Shown here: piece by piece, positions 235 through 13,876 of the stretch
How the letters are laid out: each line of letters begins with the position of its first letter
Numbering within the stretch: the first letter of the stretch is position 1
Assembly (NCBI RefSeq): GCF_000011385.1
Contig: NC_005125.1
Span: 4,588,001 to 4,652,000, forward strand
Origin: Gloeobacter violaceus PCC 7421
GTDB taxonomy: Bacteria; Cyanobacteriota; Cyanobacteriia; Gloeobacterales; Gloeobacteraceae
DNA: 64,000 nt
Direction of reading: 5' to 3'
Position numbers and translations under genes: made by a program
Notes under the pieces: model-generated
The model's database searches: none
What the model saw: only the letters and a program-made list of their open reading frames with translations
What the model was told of the DNA's origin: nothing

Positions 235-930
235 ATGCAGGGAAGGCACGTATTGCTCACCGGCGGCACGGGCGGTTTGGGTCTGGGGGTGACCCCGGCG
301 GTGCTGGCACGGGGGGCGCATTTGACGATCCCGTTTATCGCGCAGCGGGAAGTCGAGCGCCTCAAAAGCCGCCTCTGCCCGGCGGATCTGAGCCGCGTGC
401 GCTTTGTGGAGGCGAACCTGGCCGAGGAGGCGAGTGTCGAGGGATTGTTGGCTGCGCTGGAGCGGGTCGACGTGCTTATCCATCTAGTGGGAGGGTTCAA
501 CATGGGACCGACCCACCAGTACACCTACGCCGACTGGAAGCGCGACATCGAGTTGAATCTGGATACGACGTTTTTATTGTGTAAGCACTGCCTGGGGCGG
601 ATGCTGGCCACGGGCTACGGACGGATCGTCACGGTCGGTTCGCGCGGTGCGCTGGAGCCTGCCGGGCAACTGGCCGCCTATTCGGCGGCAAAAGCCGGGG
701 TGGTGGCGCTCACCAAGGCGATCGCCGCCGAGACCAAAGGCACCGGGATCACCGCCAATGTCGTGCTGCCGAGCGTCATCGACACCCCCGGCAACCGGGC
801 GGCGATGGGTGCGGAAAATGCCGACAAGTGGGTTAAACCCGAGTCGCTCGCCGAGGTGATTTGTTTTCTCGCTTCGGAGGCGGCCCGCGATGTGCGCGGG
901 GCGGCGGTGCCGGTTTACGGCAGCGTCTAG
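235..930 (+). CDS. SDR-family NAD(P)-dependent oxidoreductase
   Basis: This is a 231-aa classical short-chain dehydrogenase/reductase. The N-terminal Rossmann motif TGGTGGLG lies at about residues 9-16. The catalytic serine is in VGSRGAL, and the YSAAK motif gives the Tyr and Lys of the active site. It is a soluble cytosolic enzyme whose substrate cannot be read from sequence. The ATG at 235 is preferred because GAGGAG lies just upstream and the fold starts within a few residues; the frame stays open back to 70 but that part does not resemble an SDR. Its TAG stop shares the CTAG tetranucleotide with the convergent WD40 gene. Confidence 0.9.
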
Positions 931-3900
931 CCTGCCGCCTCCACCGCCCCCAAAGCCTGGAGCATCGACTTTTGGGCGTCGGTCAGACCCGTCACCCCGG
1001 TGATGTCCATGCCCTCGTAGAGCCGGTCGGCGCGCAGCAATTCGAGGGGTTTGCCGGTGTGACTGTCCCACAGCCGGATCGTTTCGTCCTGGCTGCCGCT
1101 GATGACGGTGCGGCCGTCGGGGCTAAAAGCCACCGACCACACCTGACTGGTATGCCCGGTGAGCGTCCGCAGGCACTCGCCGGTGGCCGCGTCCCAGAGT
1201 CTGACCGTCTGGTCGTGGCTGCTGCTGACGACCGTCCGGCTGTCGGGGCTAAAAGCCACCGACCACACTTGACTGGTGTGCCCGGTGAGTGTCCGCAGGC
1301 ACTCGCCGGTAGCCGTGTCCCAGAGCCAGACGGCGTAGTTGCCGCTGCCGCCTGCGAGGATGCGGCCATCCGGGCTGAAGGCGACCGACCACACCTGGCT
1401 GCTGTCGACTTTGAGCGTATGCAGGCATTCGCCGGTAGCGGCATTCCAGACCCGAACGGTCTGATCGAAGCTGCCGCTGGCCACCGTTCGGCCGTCGGGG
1501 CTAAAAGCCACCGACCACACCCAACTGCTGTGGCCAGTCAGGGTGCGCAGGCACTGACCGGAGGAAACCTCCCACAATTTCACCGTCTGGTCGTGGCTGC
1601 CGCTGGCCAGGGTGCGGCCGTCGGGGCTGAAGGCCACCGAACGCACCCAGTTGTTGTGGCCCGAGAGGGTGCGCAGGCACTGGCCGGTGGCCGCATCCCA
1701 GAGTTTGATGGTCTGATCGAAGCTGCCGCTGGCCAGGGTGCGGCCGTCGGGGCTGAAGGCCACCGACCACACCCAACTGCCGTGACCGGTGAGGGTGCGC
1801 ACACAACGACCCGAGGGTACATCCCAAATCCGCACGGTGCGATCGAGGCTGCCGCTGGCTAGGGTTTGGCCGTCCGGGGCAAAGGCCACCGACCAGATCC
1901 AGCCGGCGTTGCCCTGCAGCGTGCGCAGGCACTGGCCGGTGGCCGCATCCCAGATCCGCACGGTTTGATCGAGGCTGCCGCTCGCTAGCGTCTGGCCGTC
2001 CGGGGCAAAACTCACCGACCAGACCTGGCCGCTGTGGCCGGTGAAGGTGCGCAGGCATTCCCCTGTGGCTGCGTCCCAGAGCTTGACGGTGCAATCGAGG
2101 CTGCTGCTGGCCAGCCATTCTCCGTCCGGGCTGAAGGAGATCGCGCGGATGCGGCCGGTGTGGCCGGTGAGGGTGGTCAGGCAGGTACCGGTCGTCACTT
2201 CCCAGAGTTTGAGGGTCTGGTCGTGGCTGCCGCTGGCCAGCACACCGCCGTCGGGGCTGAAGGCGACCGAGAGCACCTGGTCGGTGTGGCCGGTGAGGGT
2301 GCCCAGGCGCTCGCCGGTCCTCACATCCCAGAGCTTGACGGTGCGATCGAGGCTTGCCGCGGCGAGGGTGTGCCCGTCAGGGCTGAAGGCCACCGACCAC
2401 ATCCGGCCCGTGCGCGACTTGAACGTCCGGGTGCACTGGCCGCCGGCCGCATCCCACAGCCGGACGGTTTCATTGGAGGGACTGCTGCTCGCTATCAACG
2501 TCCCATCGGGGCTGAAGGCGACCGAGTACACCCAACCGCCGTGACCGGTAAGCGTGCGCAGACACTGTCCCGTGGCCGTATCCCACAATTTGATGGTCTG
2601 ATCTTCGCTGCCGCTAGCAAGCACGCTCCCGTCGGGACTGAAGGCAAGGGCGCTGATCCAGTCGGTATGGCCCCGAAAGCTCAGCTGCTGTTGGCCGTCG
2701 CGCACTCGCCACAGGCGCACCTCGCCGCTGTCGTCGCCGATGGCGAGCAATTCCCCCTTCGGGCTGTAGGCGACGAACAGGATGCCGCCGAAGGTTTGGG
2801 CAAAGACCGAGCGGGCCAGATCCGCACCGGCAAAATTTGTGCGGTGCAGACTGACTTTTTGCAAGTACGCCTGCCAGATGGCGAGGCGCGAAAAATCCCG
2901 GCCGGCCAGATCGCTTTTCAGTTCGCACAGCAAATTGAGGGCATTGCCGCCCACATAACCGGGTTCTAGGGGTGAGTGCTCGCGCTGGGCTTCCAGGACG
3001 GCATAAAGTCGCTGCTCCAGGCTGCGCCTGCTGCCCAGGCGGGTGAGCAACTCGTCGAGGATGGGCCGCACGATCAGGCGCACCTGCGTCTCGCGAACGT
3101 AATCTTTCGATTGGGCCTTCATCAGAGCGTGGGATTTCAACAGTGCGATAGGCCCGCGCTCGATTTCGGCACACACCTGCTCGATCAGCCGCTCGGCGGT
3201 AAATTCCATCACCACCGGCTGCTGGGTAAAACCCGCACTGCTGCGCTCGATCAGCGAGCGGCGCAACAGCGATTCGAGCGCCTCGAGCAACCTGGGGGTG
3301 GGGGCGGCGGGGACGGTGTCTTCTCGAAGTTGGGCGGCGCTCACCAGTTCCCGGTGGATAGCCAGCCAGTACATCAGCTGTTTCTCGAAGTGGGTGAGCC
3401 GGTCGAACTGCTGCTCCAGCAGGTTGCGGATGCCGTTGAAGACGACCGCGCCGTGAACAAAAAATTCGCCGATGGCACCGCCGAACAACTCTTGAATCGA
3501 TGTGGAAACAATCTTGAGCGCCAGGGGGTTGCCCCGGTAACATTCCACCAGACTGCGGCGCTCGTCGGGGCTGCCGCTGAGCCCTTTCGCCTCCAGAATC
3601 GCTTCGCCCTCGTCCTCGCGCAGACCGCCCAACCGCAGCGAACGCACCGGCAGGCTCGCCCCCTCCAGCGAAGCGACTTCCTTGGGTTTCTCGCGGCTGG
3701 TGAGGATCAGGCAACTGGCGTGGGGCACTTCTCCCACCTGCCGAAACAATTCTGCGTAGGCCTCGCAGCCCTCGCGGTAGGTGCCGGTCTGCTCGGCGCC
3801 GCTTAATAGCGACTCGCCATTATCTAGAATCAACAGCGTGCGCGAACGGCGCAGGCATTCCATCAGCTTCGATAGACGCCCCTCGGTGCCCGCGGGCAGG

Positions 3901-4493
3901 TTCACCTGCGGGCTGTCGCACAGGCACTCGATAAGCTCGCCGAGCAGTTCGCCGAGCGGCGGAGCGTTGCGCAGCGAGCGCCAGACCAAATGCTCGAAGT
4001 GCTCCTGGGTCTGGCGGGCGAGCTTGACGGCGAGGGTGGATTTGCCGATGCCGCCCATACCCAGCAGCGCCACCAACCGGCAGCGCTCGCGGACCAGCCA
4101 GCCTTCGAGGGTGGCCAGTTCCTCGGTGCGCCCATAGAACAAGGACACATCGACCGCCTCACCCCAATCCTGCCGCGCTCCGCGCGGCGGGACCGGCTCG
4201 GAGGGCTCTACCGCTCCCGCTTCCGGCCGAGCATAGTCGCCGGAACCCAGATCCAGCCCGAACGCCTGGAAGAAACGAAAGAGCGTCTGTTTATCGACCC
4301 CTTCTTCGGCTGTGAGCACCTTGGCGACGGTGCTCGGATCGAGGCCGATGCGGTCACTCAGTTCTTCGAGGGTAAGGCGCTCGCCGCCGTTCGTCCGGTT
4401 CTCCAGTTCGCAGCGCGCCTCGTGCAGTCGCTGCCAGCCCTGGGGGGTCAGCCGGAAGCCGCGCCTGCGTTTTGCCTTGGGGGGGTGGTTCAT
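927..4493 (-). CDS. STAND (NB-ARC-like) NTPase with 14 WD40 repeats
   Basis: This 1188-aa signalling-type ATPase opens with a basic, HTH-like domain (about 1-80). An NB-ARC/STAND core follows, with P-loop GMGGIGKST near residue 145, Walker B LLILDN, a sensor-like LTSRE and an NPLAL motif. A short pentapeptide-like segment ([13 protein letters not shown]) precedes 14 WD40 units from about residue 565, each roughly 42 aa, enough for two seven-bladed propellers. Such proteins are ATP-driven switches whose propellers bind ligands or partners; the ligand is unknown. The start at 4493 follows GAGGAG by six bases, better than the upstream GTG at 4508. The repeats are alike at DNA level (period about 126 bp), so copy number may vary between strains. 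Confidence 0.88.
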
Positions 4494-4977
4494 CGGCGCT
4501 CCTCGCACGGAATGCAGGTGCCCCTACCCGGGCGGCCCTCTAGAGAATGTACGCCCGCTCCGGAAGTTAAGGGTGTTAAGGGGCTATCGCAGAACAATCT
4601 TTATCTTCTACAAAACGCCCCGGTGCAAGGCCTGGGCTTTGGACTGCAATGCAATGTGCAGTGGTCCTTAACGTCCCTATCGTCCCTGGATAAGGCCAGT
4701 GTAGTTCCCTAAGCTTGGTGCTGTGGAGCTCTTTGGCCGTTCCTTCTGGATTTTATCCGCCCAACCGGTCAACCGCCCGAGGCCTGCGCTCAGGCAGTCG
4801 ATACTCAGCAGTTAATTTCCCAGCGGGGGGAAGCATGGAAGCCAATCGATTCGTACCGGCTGTGCTGTGGAAGCAGCTGATGAGCCTGACCGCTCCGCAG
4901 GGGGCGCTCACCACCCCGCCCGCACCGGGCGCCGCGCCCTTTCTATCTTTTCTTCCCAATCGGGTTCAAATACAGTG
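4494..4977. other. Intergenic region between divergent genes
   Basis: These 484 bases separate the WD40 gene (minus) from an ECF-like sigma gene (plus) and must hold both promoters. Open frames here (for example 4715-4978) have no ribosome binding site or recognisable protein, so I treat them as chance. I could not pick out convincing -35/-10 pairs. A GGGTTCAAAT string at 4962-4971 resembles a tRNA T-loop, but no cloverleaf surrounds it. Confidence 0.5.
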
Positions 4978-6665: not shown

Positions 6666-7700
6666 TCACCCGCCTACATACTGCTGCAGGATCTGCTTGC
6701 GCTTGCTGCGCCGCAGCTTGCGCAGCGCTTCCGATTCGATTTGCCGGATGCGCTCGCGGGTCAGATCAAAGCGCTCGCCCACCTCGCGCAGGGTCAGGCC
6801 CTCCTCGCCCTTGAGGCCGAAGCGCAGGGCGAGTACCTCGCGCTCCACGGGCTTGAGTACATTCATGGCCGCGTACAGTTCGCTTGCCAGCGCCTTTTGC
6901 ACCAGTTCGTCGAAGGGCCGCTCTGCGGTGCCGTCCTCGATCATCTCGCCCAGTGAAATGTCCCCTTCGCTGCCCACGGGCATGTCGAGGGACACCGGCT
7001 GGCGGGAGACTTCTTGAATGGTGCGCAGCTTCTTGACTTTGATCGCCAGACGGGAAGCGAGTTCGTCCTCGCTCGGCCGCCGGCCCAGTTCCAGCGTCGC
7101 CATGCGCATCTCGCGGCGCACCTTGCGCACTTTTTCGACCATGTGAATGGGCAGGCGAATCGTGCGCGCCTGGTTGGCGATAGCGCGGGTGATGCTCTGG
7201 CGGATCCACCAGGTGGCGTAGGTCGAGAAGCGGTAGCCCTTTTCAGGGTCGAACTTCTCTGTGGCGCGCATCAGGCCGATATTACCCTCCTGGATGAGAT
7301 CGAGAAAGGGCACATTGCGACCGATATATTTTTTGGCGATCGAGACCACCAGGCGCAAATTGGCGTTGATGAGCTTGCGCTGCGCCCACAGCCCCTGGCG
7401 GGTCGCCTCGATGAGGGCCTTGGGATCGCGACCCATGAAGGCGGCCACGTCCTCTTCCGGCGAAGGTCGACCCAGCCGCATCGCCAGCTCCTCGCGCGCC
7501 CCGTCGATGGCAAGCTTCGCCTGGATGCGGCGGGCCAGATGAATTTCTTCCTCGGGGGTTACCCGCGGGATGCGACCAATCTCGTTGAGATACAGATCGA
7601 CCAGGTCGTCACTACCCTGGGCCTCGCTCCTGGAGGGCAGATTGCCCTCGTCAAGGCCAAAGGGTTGCTCCTCCGAATCGCGGTGCCTCGCTCTCACCAC
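6666..7700 (-). CDS. Group 2 (primary-like) sigma-70 factor
   Basis: This protein of about 344 aa is a non-essential primary-type sigma factor. Region 1.2 is DDLVDLYLNEIGRIPRVT. Region 2 contains NLRLVVSIAKKYIGR, FLDLIQEGNIGLMRA and FSTYATWWIRQSITRAI. Region 3 starts RTIRLPIHMVEK, and region 4 ends in an HTH with LTRERIRQIESEALRKLR. Region 1.1 is short, typical of cyanobacterial SigB/C/D/E relatives; which one it matches cannot be told by eye. The start is ambiguous: tandem GTG codons at 7700 and 7697 follow AGAGGA, while the frame reaches a TTG at 7757. Confidence 0.93.
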   Translation of the reverse strand: MVRARHRDSEEQPFGLDEGNLPSRSEAQGSDDLVDLYLNEIGRIPRVTPEEEIHLARRIQAKLAIDGAREELAMRLGRPSPEEDVAAFMGRDPKALIEATRQGLWAQRKLINANLRLVVSIAKKYIGRNVPFLDLIQEGNIGLMRATEKFDPEKGYRFSTYATWWIRQSITRAIANQARTIRLPIHMVEKVRKVRREMRMATLELGRRPSEDELASRLAIKVKKLRTIQEVSRQPVSLDMPVGSEGDISLGEMIEDGTAERPFDELVQKALASELYAAMNVLKPVEREVLALRFGLKGEEGLTLREVGERFDLTRERIRQIESEALRKLRRSKRKQILQQYVGG

Positions 7701-7880
7701 CGTTCCTCTCCCTCTCGTCTGGCTGCCGGATGTCTCAACATTAAGGAAATCTTGCAAACGGCTGTAAACGAAAATCGATCATCGGCTAAGATTTTTTATA
7801 GGGTTAGGATGAATCCAACCCTGATGAGAGCTCTTTTGTCTTCAATTCAAGCGTCTTTCAGCCATTTTCGATTTTCGATC

Positions 7881-8153
7881 ATGTCCCACGCAGATGCGAT
7901 CAACCCCAACCACGGCCCCCGTCCCACCAATTTGATCGGACCGCAGGTGCGCTACCTGCGCGAGCGGCTGGGGCTGACCCAGGACGAGTTGGCGGGGCGG
8001 CTGTGCCGCTACGGGTTGGAACTCGATTACGTCAAAATCGGACAAATCGAAAACGGCAAGCGCCGGGTCGTCGATTGGGAGCTGGTGGGCTTCGCGCGGG
8101 CGCTCGGGGTGTCCGTGAACTGGTTGCTCTGCGGAGAAGACGGGAGGTTGTAG
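7881..8153 (+). CDS. XRE-family HTH transcriptional regulator
   Basis: This small protein of about 90 aa carries one Cro/CI-type helix-turn-helix: GPQVRYLRERLGLTQDELAG, then VKIGQIENGKRRVVDWELV, ending in ALGVSVNWLLCGED. Little lies outside the domain, so it should bind DNA as a dimer without a sensor domain. An upstream in-frame ATG at 7809 would add 24 residues and has an AGGG six bases before it, so the start is unsettled. It lies 4 nt before the nuclease-like gene and presumably controls it, as controller (C) proteins do in restriction systems; that is inference. Confidence 0.85.
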   Translation: MSHADAINPNHGPRPTNLIGPQVRYLRERLGLTQDELAGRLCRYGLELDYVKIGQIENGKRRVVDWELVGFARALGVSVNWLLCGEDGRL

Positions 8154-8157
8154 GCCG

Positions 8158-9615
8158 ATGGATCGCGCACTGCCGCTTGAGCGCTACGACCTGTACCTGC
8201 TGGCGGGTCGGTTGCTCGCACACCATTTGGCCCGCTCGGGCGGTGTCCAGGTCAGGGCCATTGAGGTGGCCCTGGCGGTGCAGTACTTTCAAGATCTCGT
8301 GCCGGTGGTGGGCAGCGGCGGGGGCATCGGCCTCGACGAAGTGGCCGAGCGCATCTGCGACGGCCTCTACCGCAAAAGCGACGGGCGCCTGCCCCACGGT
8401 CCCAAGGGTGAAACGCTCGTCTGGCCCATCTTGAACCTCGATAGCGAAGGGGTTCCCCAGCCGCTGTTGCCGCAGTCGAGCGCCGAAGGCGATTTTCGCT
8501 GGCACAAGCTGTGCAACGGCCAGCGCGGCATCGGCTGCCACGCCGCCGCCATCCACTTCTGGCAGGATGTCGAATTTCTCGAAGGCGACCGCGACCTGTG
8601 CCCATTTCGGGTCTACGACGGCCATACCTCCCTGGTGATTGACCAGGGCCGCCAGAAGTGCGGCTTCGACGGCAACCCCTGCGGCTGGCAACCGGGCCTG
8701 CCCAAGTTTTTGCAGGTGCTCGGCCGGGGCCGCCAGGCCCGCCTCAGCCGAGTGGCCTGGACAGTGCCGATGTGGCAGGCGCTCGTACCGGCGGGTCAGG
8801 CGCTGCCGGTTTATCCGCTGCTGGCGGCGCTCTACTTCGGAGCGCCCCAACTGGCCAAGGGCCGTGGGACGATCACCCCCGAACAGTTCCGCTGCGATTT
8901 CGGCCTTACAGAAGCGGTCTTCGCGGCTCTTTTTGAGGCCGCTCCCGAGCATCCGCTCAATCGCCGCCTGCTTACTCACCTCGATGCGCCGCCTGCGGGC
9001 GAGCCGCTCTCGCCGCGCTTCGTGCTGCCGGTACTGCCGCCCGAGCGCGAGCGCGGGCGCCCGAGCGGCGGCAGGCTCGTCATCGATCCCGACGAAAAAC
9101 CCGCCTATCAAAAAAGCGGCGTCCCCGGCGGCAGCGCCCGCGATCCGCTGCTGGCCGAGCGCCGACGTCGGCGCCAACTGGAGCGCACCGCCCGTCACGA
9201 CGAAGTGCTCACCCACTTCCGGCGCTGGTTTCGCCTGGCGGGCAAAGAGGTGCGCGAGGACGCCGATACCTTCGACTTTTTGGCCATCGACGAACAACAG
9301 GTGTTACTCGCCGAAATCAAGGTGCTCGGCCAGCAGGATCTGGCCGAAGCCATCCAGGAGACGGTCGGCCAACTGCTCTACTACCAGCGCTTTGCGCTGG
9401 CACCCTGGCGCGAGGAAGGCTATCCGATCGCCATGGCCGCCGTTTTCGAGCGGCCTCCCATCGGCGAATTTGTGACCTTCCTGGGCGCTTTGAATATTCA
9501 CACCTACTGGATCGGCGAAGACCAGCACATCGACGGCCCCGAGGAAAGTCTGGCACTCATCCGTTCGATGGGGGTGCAGGTACACGCCGACCCCGAACTG
9601 ATGCGCGATGCCTAG
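8158..9615 (+). CDS. Unknown protein with C-terminal PD-(D/E)XK nuclease-like domain
   Basis: I do not recognise this 485-aa protein as a whole. The C-terminal third carries a plausible PD-(D/E)XK core: DTFDFLAID (about 369-377), LLAEIKVLG (E-x-K near 386-388), and a helix with AIQETVGQLLYYQRF that resembles the helix after the catalytic strand in restriction-endonuclease folds. The N-terminal 300 residues contain conserved-looking Cys, His and Trp residues (IGCHAAAIHFWQD, KCGFDGNPCGW) but no known motif. A basic linker (AERRRRRQLERTARHDE) joins the parts. GGGAGG ten bases upstream supports the ATG, and it is coupled to the XRE gene. A DNA- or RNA-cleaving role is inferred. Confidence 0.6.
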   Translation: MDRALPLERYDLYLLAGRLLAHHLARSGGVQVRAIEVALAVQYFQDLVPVVGSGGGIGLDEVAERICDGLYRKSDGRLPHGPKGETLVWPILNLDSEGVPQPLLPQSSAEGDFRWHKLCNGQRGIGCHAAAIHFWQDVEFLEGDRDLCPFRVYDGHTSLVIDQGRQKCGFDGNPCGWQPGLPKFLQVLGRGRQARLSRVAWTVPMWQALVPAGQALPVYPLLAALYFGAPQLAKGRGTITPEQFRCDFGLTEAVFAALFEAAPEHPLNRRLLTHLDAPPAGEPLSPRFVLPVLPPERERGRPSGGRLVIDPDEKPAYQKSGVPGGSARDPLLAERRRRRQLERTARHDEVLTHFRRWFRLAGKEVREDADTFDFLAIDEQQVLLAEIKVLGQQDLAEAIQETVGQLLYYQRFALAPWREEGYPIAMAAVFERPPIGEFVTFLGALNIHTYWIGEDQHIDGPEESLALIRSMGVQVHADPELMRDA

Positions 9616-12609: not shown

Positions 12610-12647
12610 GGCGGGGCACGATAGGGATAAAAGCGTTCCGGGGGGCG

Positions 12648-12893
12648 ATGAAAATCGAGATCAAGTTGTTCGCCAGCTACCGCGAGGCGTTCGAGCGCGA
12701 CGAGTTGGTGCTGGAATTGCCCGAGGGCACCACCTGCGCCCAGATCCAGCGGCATCTGGCGGGCGAGCGGCCGCAACTGGCGCGCTGGGAGGCGGTGGTC
12801 CGCTACGGCCTCAATCGCCAGTTCGTCGCCCCCGACACCCCAGTGGCCGACGGCGACGAACTGGTGCTCATCCCGCCGGTGAGCGGAGGGTAG
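12648..12893 (+). CDS. moaD: Molybdopterin synthase small subunit
   Basis: MoaD is a ubiquitin-fold sulfur carrier whose C-terminal thiocarboxylate supplies the dithiolene sulfurs of molybdopterin. The 81-aa length, the start MKIEIKLFASYREAF and the end VLIPPVSGG with its terminal Gly-Gly all fit. It lies immediately upstream of moaE, its partner, with 4 nt between the genes. The ATG at 12648 begins the first beta strand. Confidence 0.95.
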   Translation: MKIEIKLFASYREAFERDELVLELPEGTTCAQIQRHLAGERPQLARWEAVVRYGLNRQFVAPDTPVADGDELVLIPPVSGG

Positions 12894-12897
12894 GGCC

Positions 12898-13347
12898 GTG
12901 GGCGGCGAACACTTTTGTTTTACGGACAAACCGCTTTCGATCGAGCGCGCCTACACCCTGACGGCCGCTCCCGCCTCGGGGGCGGTGGTGACGATGGTGG
13001 GCACCGTGCGCGCCAGCACCGGGGGGCGGGCGGTCGCTTTTCTTGATTACGAAGCGTTTGAACCGATGGCCCTGGATGTCTTTGCGCAGATCGCCCGTCA
13101 GATCCGCGAGCGCTGGCCCGCCACCGGCAACATCGTCATCCACCACCGCCTGGGACGCCTCATGGTGGGCGAAGCGAGCGTGATCATCGCCGTGGGCAAC
13201 GCCCACCGAGCCGACGCCTTTGCCGCCTGCCAGTACGCCATCGACACCCTCAAGCTGGATGCTCCTATCTGGAAAAAAGAGCACTGGGCGGATGGGGACA
13301 GCGACTGGGTGGTGGGTCTGGCGGTTCTCACTGAACCGAGTACCTGA
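12898..13347 (+). CDS. moaE: Molybdopterin synthase catalytic subunit
   Basis: MoaE converts precursor Z (cPMP) to molybdopterin using MoaD thiocarboxylate. The 149-aa protein has the family pattern: GAVVTMVGTVRAST, LDYEAFEPMA, IVIHHRLGRLMVGEASV, AACQYAIDTLK and the catalytic lysine region PIWKKEHW. The start is a GTG at 12898, four bases after the moaD stop, implying translational coupling. The pair supplies molybdenum cofactor for enzymes such as nitrate reductase that lie elsewhere. Confidence 0.95.
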   Translation: MGGEHFCFTDKPLSIERAYTLTAAPASGAVVTMVGTVRASTGGRAVAFLDYEAFEPMALDVFAQIARQIRERWPATGNIVIHHRLGRLMVGEASVIIAVGNAHRADAFAACQYAIDTLKLDAPIWKKEHWADGDSDWVVGLAVLTEPST

Positions 13348-13354
13348 AGCCGGT

Positions 13355-13540
13355 TTACGGGTTTGCCCGGCCCCGAAATTGGTCTACCAGCGCTTTGAAT
13401 TCCTGCCATTCTTCAGGGTTCAAAAAGCGCTCACCTCGCAGTTTGTCCCGACCGGTTGCACCGCTGGCCACCGCCCGTGCACGAGCCAGCTGCATCAGTT
13501 CTACAAGGCGCTGTTGGCGTTGATCTGTCACGTTGCTCAT
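13355..13540 (-). CDS. Small protein of unknown function (61 aa)
   Basis: The protein begins MSNVTDQRQQRLVELMQLAR, is highly charged and probably helical, and ends in QEFKALVDQFRGRANP. Its ATG overlaps the TGA of the upstream 50-aa frame by four bases (ATGA), so the two are translationally coupled. The size and arrangement resemble a toxin-antitoxin or small two-component unit, but I recognise neither partner. It converges on moaE with a 7-nt gap. Confidence 0.55.
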   Translation of the reverse strand: MSNVTDQRQQRLVELMQLARARAVASGATGRDKLRGERFLNPEEWQEFKALVDQFRGRANP

Positions 13541-13689
13541 CTTCCTGGTTCTGCATCCACGGGTATCACCTCTCCATCAAAAATTAGCTGGGCCACCGGT
13601 AGTGACGGGCTGGGCGTCTTGATATACCAGGTGCCGGTCTCCCGAATCACAGACATCGGATTCCAGTAATTCGAGGGCATCGAGGGCAT
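13537..13689 (-). CDS. Small upstream partner, about 50 aa, possibly frameshifted
   Basis: This frame reads NYWNPMSVIRETGTWYIK near its start and LPVAQLIFDGEVIPVD later, a plausible small beta-rich domain, and ends by overlapping the next gene (ATGA). Its two possible ATG codons lie in a 9-bp direct repeat, ATGCCCTCG twice. A different frame just upstream begins at 13723 and reads MEPSEAQFLIVNALDALELL, which also looks protein-like before decaying. The gene may therefore start at 13723 and have suffered a frameshift near 13680. Confidence 0.4.
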   Translation of the reverse strand: MPSMPSNYWNPMSVIRETGTWYIKTPSPSLPVAQLIFDGEVIPVDAEPGR

Positions 13690-13876
13690 TGACGATTAGA
13701 AACTGTGCCTCACTCGGCTCCATCTATGTCTCATGAAGACTACACAGGCAGGATACCCACGCAGCCTGCGTCATCCTGCAACCGTCGCTCAATCCTGGAT
13801 TTTTTGACTTCAGCCGCAGACGCACCGCCGATATGCTATCGATCGAGGGTGGTTTATTATATTGCCCGCGAGGTAC

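What the first reader, a model, noticed from the sequence alone, without database searches (positions are those of the whole stretch)
7881..9615. XRE regulator coupled to a PD-(D/E)XK-like nuclease with a novel N-terminal domain
Two genes 4 nt apart: a minimal Cro/CI protein and a 485-aa protein with D...E-x-K core spacing. There is no DNA methyltransferase gene next to them; the convergent cbiT is a corrinoid enzyme. The layout recalls control-protein-regulated restriction or single-gene defence nucleases. The 300-residue N-terminal part with Cys/His/Trp motifs matches nothing I recognise.
Basis: partly seen in the sequence, partly recalled or inferred. Interest (0 to 1): 0.55.

Follow-up and report, generated by a model that had tools for sequence, protein, structure and literature searches.

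The report
Ancient orphan restriction-type DNA-cutting enzyme
In some early branches of cyanobacteria, a probable DNA-cutting enzyme that shares its presumed DNA-recognition part with bacterial restriction enzymes has been kept as an ordinary inherited gene, without the protective partner gene such enzymes normally need.

Summary
In detail: XRE gene 7881-8153 and a 485-aa gene 8158-9615, 4 nt apart, no DNA methyltransferase gene beside them. The 485-aa protein has no family match, but its C-terminus models as a PD-(D/E)XK nuclease (D373, E386, K388 invariant in 17 of 17 aligned rows). So it is most likely a restriction specificity domain.

The defence reading is not supported. Homologues sit in 18 of 388 genomes sampled from the class, single-copy, apparently vertically inherited, with no cognate methyltransferase found; the sampled neighbours are not defence genes; GTCTC is not avoided. 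The XRE orthologue occurs in exactly the same 18 genomes, always divergent from a sigma factor, with a conserved dyad (CGAWWWTCGATC) in every XRE-sigma interval; the nuclease is next to XRE only in Gloeobacterales.

Best reading: a domesticated, methyltransferase-less restriction-type nuclease, in Gloeobacterales read from the XRE/sigma switch. Its substrate is unknown. Shared ancestry alone could explain the co-occurrence.

The parts
6666..7757 (-). sigma-70 family factor (regions 1.2, 2, 3, 4), divergent from the XRE gene; its counterpart is divergent from the XRE orthologue in 18 of 18 holder genomes
   Evidence: Pfam; synteny in 18 of 18; one 100/100 clade of 12 XRE-type sigma rows
7769..7780 (+). 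operator-like dyad copy 1 (CGAAAATCGATC), sigma side
   Evidence: exact match; conserved in the sigma-XRE intervals of the holders
7869..7880 (+). operator-like dyad copy 2 (CGATTTTCGATC), abutting the XRE start codon
   Evidence: exact match; conserved
7881..8153 (+). XRE-family regulator, 90 aa, closest PDB sequences are 434 repressor; orthologue present in exactly the 18 genomes that hold the nuclease
8158..9615 (+). 485-aa restriction-type nuclease (whole gene)
8158..9012 (+). N-terminal specificity-type domain (residues 1-285), shared with the presumed R genes of dual-methyltransferase R-M systems
   Evidence: hhalign 99.4%, E 1.6e-21; BLASTP E 9e-15 and 6e-12
8536..8682 (+). stretch with the codons of the conserved Cys cluster C127, C148, C168, C175 (probable metal site; inferred)
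9154..9186 (+). conserved basic linker AERRRRRQLER (residues 333-343)
   Evidence: alignments
9190..9573 (+). C-terminal PD-(D/E)XK nuclease domain (residues 345-472); D373 at 9274-9276, E386 at 9313-9315, K388 at 9319-9321
   Evidence: model and structure comparison; conservation

Best explanation
The 485-aa protein is a domesticated restriction-type endonuclease. Shown here: an N-terminal domain homologous over its full length to that of presumed R-M restriction subunits; a C-terminal domain modelled with the PD-(D/E)XK fold, with invariant D, E and K; no cognate methyltransferase found; a distribution and trees that fit vertical inheritance; an XRE orthologue in exactly the same genomes; and a conserved dyad in every XRE-sigma intergenic region. 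Inferred: the N-terminal domain, with its Cys cluster, binds a DNA sequence or a modified or damaged form of it; the C-terminal domain cuts; cutting of the host genome is avoided by choice of substrate or by low expression rather than by methylation. In Gloeobacterales the gene is the second of an operon whose XRE product binds the two dyads and controls its own operon and the divergent sigma factor, so nuclease level follows that switch. In the other holders the nuclease has its own promoter.
For: N-domain homology: hhalign E 1.6e-21 over columns 5-283; pairwise E 9e-15 and 6e-12; found in both directions in genome searches. In all three R genes (L046, L050, L200) it is followed by NOV_C (Pfam for L046 and L200; record annotation DUF3883 for L050), and they lie directly behind an N6A-type and an m5C methyltransferase gene (the TIGR02987 model was run on L046's only). 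C-domain fold: most of the top rows are PD-(D/E)XK proteins (labels recalled), Z 8.8 to 5.4. Catalytic residues 17 of 17. TIGR02987 over its cut-off in 0 of 18 holders and PF00145 absent from 9 of 18, the window's genome included. XRE orthologue in 18 of 18 holders and in 0 of the other 370 genomes at that level. Dyad within one mismatch in 18 of 18 sigma-XRE intervals (43 site calls, dyad mates included, against 0.24 in mononucleotide shuffles). Nuclease, XRE and sigma trees agree in broad outline.
Against: Direction of descent is not shown: R-M systems may have taken the domain from a housekeeping nuclease. No DNA binding or cleavage is shown. The dyad is absent from the 400 bp upstream of all 10 unlinked nuclease genes, so XRE control of the nuclease is not general. 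Co-occurrence may be shared ancestry: the holders look like early-branching lineages, and the SigA tree could not place G027. In the short XRE tree, drawn with midpoint root, G007 and G008 do not group with the other Gloeobacterales. The N-terminal model has no fold match, and residues 146-165 are under pLDDT 50. The C-domain Z values are middling and Foldseek alone gave no E under 0.001.
Confidence: 0.5

Rival explanations
1. A housekeeping DNA repair, recombination or DNA-uptake nuclease (working like NucS/EndoMS: N-terminal DNA-binding domain plus C-terminal PD-(D/E)XK domain). It never was a restriction enzyme; R-M systems borrowed its N-terminal domain.
For: Distribution and trees that fit vertical inheritance, single copy; neighbours of unlinked copies are housekeeping genes (enolase, ATP-sulfurylase, TGT, NAD synthase, recR, comFB); C-domain rows include NucS/EndoMS at Z 7.5 and archaeal Hjc at 6.5; GTCTC, the Alw26I site (recalled), is not avoided in holder sequence (observed/expected 0.90-0.95).
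Against: The only relatives of the N-domain found outside the family are presumed restriction genes, and the XRE is nearest to controller-protein models. Z values near 7 are common for unspecific matches.
Confidence: 0.3
2. An active stand-alone anti-phage nuclease (orphan restriction or type IV-like) that recognises modified or otherwise non-self DNA and needs no methyltransferase.
For: Restriction-type specificity domain plus nuclease; an XRE regulator resembling controller proteins.
Against: No specific defence match among 9 neighbours in the window (only generic matches) or among 10 neighbours of unlinked copies; no relative in plasmid or phage records or in the viral contigs scanned; stable vertical inheritance is unusual for defence genes.
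Confidence: 0.15
3. The XRE and the sigma factor form one regulatory pair, and the nuclease is an unrelated neighbour that came to lie behind the XRE gene in Gloeobacterales; the matching distribution is only shared ancestry. (Compatible with any nuclease function above, so the confidences do not add to one.)
For: The XRE-sigma pair is kept in 18 of 18 holders, the XRE-nuclease pair in 8 of 18; no dyad upstream of 10 of 10 unlinked nuclease genes.
Against: The tight operon is kept across all 8 Gloeobacterales holders; the distributions match exactly, including G027, whose nuclease and XRE lie on different contigs.
Confidence: 0.4

Closest known systems
Presumed R subunits (NOV_C/DUF3883 type) of dual-methyltransferase R-M systems with an Alw26I/Eco31I/Esp3I-type N6A methyltransferase (found here: L046 in G288, Roseomonas plasmid CP099480.1, viral contig L200)
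   Same: The whole N-terminal domain (about 280 residues, Cys cluster); a C-terminal nuclease-type domain with D...E-x-K
   Different: C-terminal domain of another family (hhalign probability 5%, aligned only at the D...ExK core); no methyltransferase partners; chromosomal and apparently vertical
C-protein-controlled type II R-M systems
   Same: Small XRE regulator directly upstream of a nuclease gene; operator-like dyads at its own promoter
   Different: No methyltransferase; the divergent gene is a sigma factor; the nuclease is unlinked from the XRE in 10 of 18 genomes
NucS/EndoMS and other two-domain RecB-like nucleases
   Same: N-terminal domain followed by a PD-(D/E)XK domain (Z 7.5, rmsd 3.1 over 100-101 residues)
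   Different: N-terminal domain without detectable similarity in sequence or fold
COG4636 putative PD-(D/E)XK nucleases, many in Gloeobacter (PMC551604, passages read)
   Same: PD-(D/E)XK-like proteins abundant in cyanobacteria
   Different: No Pfam family matched the 485-aa protein at E 10; it is single copy, whereas the paper reports 95 COG4636 copies in G. violaceus and horizontal spread

Membership tests
PD-(D/E)XK nuclease superfamily | common core fold | tested here: met
   AlphaFold2 model; most of the best rows are PD-(D/E)XK proteins, Z 8.8-5.4. Caveat: Z is middling and Foldseek E is 0.04 or worse
PD-(D/E)XK nuclease superfamily | conserved D and E-x-K catalytic residues | tested here: met
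   D373, E386, K388 in 17 of 17 rows
PD-(D/E)XK nuclease superfamily | metal-dependent DNA cleavage | not testable with these tools
   needs purified protein
Type II restriction-modification system | cognate DNA methyltransferase | tested here: not met
   none adjacent; TIGR02987 over cut-off in 0 of 18 holders; PF00145 absent in 9 of 18 including the window's genome. Other adenine methyltransferase families were not searched one by one
Type II restriction-modification system | restriction-subunit specificity domain | tested here: met
   full-length homology to the N-domain of three presumed R genes; that the domain sets specificity is inferred
Alw26I/Eco31I/Esp3I restriction endonucleases (TIGR02986) | match to the family model | tested here: not met
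   NCBIfam scan of the protein gave no family at E 10; nor did L046's R gene at E 0.1
R-M controller (C) protein | small XRE protein that binds an operator at its own promoter | tested here: inconclusive
   best PADLOC family Control_protein, E 2.8e-6; conserved dyads; binding not shown
R-M controller (C) protein | controls the genes of an R-M system | tested here: not met
   no methyltransferase gene; the conserved partner is a sigma factor
Anti-phage defence system | location among defence genes or on mobile elements | tested here: not met
   neighbours were sampled, not scanned in every genome

The most novel reading that the evidence does not exclude
An ancient three-gene module of early-branching cyanobacteria (XRE regulator, dedicated sigma factor, restriction-type nuclease) in which a restriction enzyme has been turned into a regulated host function that acts on the cell's own or incoming DNA under a transcriptional switch shared with a sigma factor.
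Probability: 0.2. Interest if true: 0.75.

Novelty: new variant of a known kind. Interest (0 to 1): 0.5.

Why it matters
Restriction enzymes are held to be costly and quickly lost without their methyltransferase (general knowledge). A restriction-type specificity domain kept intact with a catalytic nuclease domain, in single copy and apparently by vertical descent in early branches of cyanobacteria, would be a clear case of domestication and gives a defined protein and operator to test. It also gives a lead on an unassigned N-terminal domain: the same module is joined to two different PD-(D/E)XK-type domains, which marks it as a portable, probably DNA-recognising part.

Tried and rejected
Defence island: not supported. 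In one search the matches were a WD40 protein to HEAT-ARM_XIII, the sigma factor to MzaA and two methyltransferase-fold proteins to mad2, all generic in my reading.

Unprotected cutting of the Alw26I site: GTCTC is not avoided (0.90-0.95 of expectation) in Gloeobacter, Gloeobacterales or f7 sequence, and no asymmetric 5- or 6-mer stands out as missing (104, 166 and 179 kb of fetched sequence, not whole genomes).

XRE as a general regulator of the nuclease: no dyad within 400 bp upstream of 10 of 10 unlinked nuclease genes. Genome-wide the motif is no commoner in the 18 holders than in three non-holders.

N-terminal fold: no confident match in PDB or viral models. The weak second-look rows (Z 2.9-3.9; YceH, LOTUS, ESCRT-II, PafBC and others) are mostly winged-helix proteins (recalled); not used as evidence. 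Sequence profiles against PDB: nothing for the N-domain, one irrelevant row for the whole protein.

Relatives in phages, plasmids and viral contigs: none of the window protein. L046's R protein led to Roseomonas (none in phages, or viral contigs), and the Roseomonas N-domain led to L200 (nothing new in plasmids or phages).

Independent losses: G006 (same order) has the sigma factor but no XRE or nuclease; its sigma match ends 85 bp from a contig end, so this absence is uninformative. A SigA tree could not place G027; holding it with G062 and f7 was not rejected (AU p 0.305).

TIGR02986 restriction enzymes were sought as a yardstick for the N-domain; 96 genomes gave one short weak match, so the N-domain was not compared with Eco31I itself. 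A search for the NOV_C family in the phylum added nothing.

Literature: seven searches. Passages of PMC551604 and PMC11119718 were read; the rest were seen as listings only. No description of this gene, the XRE-sigma pair or the N-domain appeared in those listings; most subscription papers are not held.

Rows dropped before counting: of 21 genomes matched, G209 and G249 (short matches with stops) and G288 (N-domain only, the R-M relative) were not counted as holders.

Full report
What is there. The window is part of a 4,659,019-base single-contig genome; by its length (recalled) it is Gloeobacter violaceus PCC 7421, and the close named relatives found are Gloeobacterales MAGs and one labelled Aphanocapsa lilacina. 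The XRE gene (7881-8153) and the 485-aa gene (8158-9615) are as described, 4 nt apart. The 485-aa protein matched no family at E 10 in Pfam, NCBIfam, PADLOC or PHROGs, and its only PDB-sequence rows were two at E 1.5.

Nuclease domain. An AlphaFold2 model from 17 aligned rows (A1; pLDDT 76.9) has a C-terminal domain (about residues 345-472) whose best structural neighbours are mostly PD-(D/E)XK proteins (labels recalled): Can2/Cdn1, XisH, AF1548, Card1, NucS/EndoMS, BsmI, Nt.BspD6I, McrBC, Hjc, FokI, with Z 8.8 down to 5.4. Foldseek alone gave no E under 0.001. D373, E386 and K388 are invariant in 17 of 17 rows. A conserved basic stretch (RRRRRQLER) precedes the domain.

N-terminal domain. A class-wide search brought up one distant relative, in G288, matching the N-terminal part only (E 6.2e-6). 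It is a 441-aa protein with a NOV_C domain (PF13020, E 2.6e-17), next to an m5C methyltransferase and an Alw26I/Eco31I/Esp3I-family N6A methyltransferase (TIGR02987, 415 bits over a cut-off of 353.5). The reverse search from it found the N-terminal part of the window's family in 8 holder genomes at E 2.9e-6 to 7.1e-4. Two further systems of the same layout turned up: a Roseomonas plasmid and a viral contig, L200. Profile comparison of the family's N-domain (13 rows) with these three gave 99.4% probability, E 1.6e-21, over nearly the whole domain. The C-terminal parts (13 rows against 2) gave only 5%, aligned just at the D...E-x-K core. So one N-terminal module is joined to two different nuclease-type domains. 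In restriction enzymes with separate parts, such a constant part with an exchangeable nuclease is expected to be the specificity domain (inference). That these three genes are the restriction subunits is inferred from position and domains. C127, C148 and C168 are in 17 of 17 rows and C175 in 16 of 17, which suggests a metal site. The N-domain model alone has pTM 0.83 but no fold match.

Distribution. Of 388 genomes sampled from the class, 18 hold a long homologue (three weaker matches were not counted): 6 of the same family, 2 others of the order, 8 of family f7, and one each of f22 and f31. No relative was found in plasmids, phages or viral contigs. Trees of nuclease, XRE and sigma factor agree in the main groups, as expected for vertical descent; the short XRE tree is less clear. 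Sampled neighbours of unlinked copies are mostly housekeeping genes and none of 10 matched PADLOC.

No methyltransferase. None of the 18 holders has a TIGR02987 match over the cut-off (of 19 genomes searched only G288 was over it), and 9 of 18, including the window's own genome, have no PF00145 match at all. GTCTC is not avoided. This is not a conventional R-M system.

The regulator. The XRE orthologue (64-99% identity; in G102 split by a frame break) occurs in exactly the same 18 of 388 genomes; the next-best match in another genome has 42% identity. It lies directly upstream of the nuclease in 8 of 8 Gloeobacterales holders and not in the fetched surroundings of the nuclease in the other genomes examined (for G036 the two genes are on different contigs). 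In all 18 it is divergent from a sigma-70 factor. That sigma factor forms one clade (100/100, 12 of 12 rows), found in 11 of 11 holders searched, in G006, and at that level in none of 9 other non-holders. G006's match ends 85 bp from a contig end, so its lack of XRE and nuclease says nothing.

Operator. Each sigma-XRE interval holds CGAWWWTCGATC within one mismatch: two separate sites in 14 of 18 genomes and one in 4; 43 site calls with dyad mates against 0.24 in mononucleotide shuffles. In the window the copies are at 7769-7780 and 7869-7880, 100 bp apart on one strand, the second abutting the XRE start codon. Close relatives (G000, G001, G003) are not independent. The motif is no rarer in three non-holders, so only its place is special. 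Binding by the XRE is inferred.

Links to R-M control. The nearest paralogues of the XRE, in G016 and G007, are 82-aa proteins between a divergent m5C methyltransferase and an HNH nuclease, a usual controller-protein layout. PADLOC's best family for the window XRE is Control_protein.

Reading. The simplest account is that a restriction-type nuclease, and perhaps its controller, became a fixed chromosomal gene set early in cyanobacterial history, without a methyltransferase. How the host escapes cutting is unknown: a substrate limited to modified, damaged or foreign DNA, or tight control. The reverse descent, and a plain repair role, remain open. Shared ancestry could by itself explain the matching distribution, because I could not place G027 on an organism tree.

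Noticed in passing
L046:10631-11863, L050:about 12624-13794, L200:3790-5004: The m5C methyltransferases of the three dual-methyltransferase R-M systems look circularly permuted: in L046 the C-terminal part of PF00145 comes first in the protein; the other two read alike by eye.
   Followed up: partly
upstream of the nuclease in L041, L049, L038, L017, L040: An inverted repeat of the type GTCTCA...TGAGAC, fully or partly kept, lies roughly 65-100 bp upstream of unlinked nuclease genes; GTCTC is also the Alw26I recognition sequence (recalled). Chance or an autoregulatory site.
   Followed up: no
upstream of the nuclease in L038, L039, L040, L041, L049, L017: A conserved promoter-like stretch GTTTCTCYAYTACACTGAC precedes the nuclease in f7 genomes.
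   Followed up: no
window 927-4508 (-): 1193-aa protein with a long C-terminal WD40 repeat region and, by eye, an N-terminal HTH and NTPase-like part; such STAND-like proteins can be defence or signalling proteins.
   Followed up: no
L119:4130-6159 and L120:4139-6206: m5C methyltransferase, XRE controller and 257-aa HNH nuclease: what looks like a complete controller-type R-M system in G016 and G007.
   Followed up: partly
L045:1392-2860 and L118:4634-4866: In G111 the nuclease gene, and in G102 the XRE gene, is broken into two overlapping or adjoining pieces: frame breaks, real or assembly errors.
   Followed up: no
L042:8239-8721 (-) and L045:3479-4078 (+): Neighbours of the nuclease in G062 (ComFB, competence) and G111 (RecR, repair) are DNA-handling genes.
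   Followed up: no
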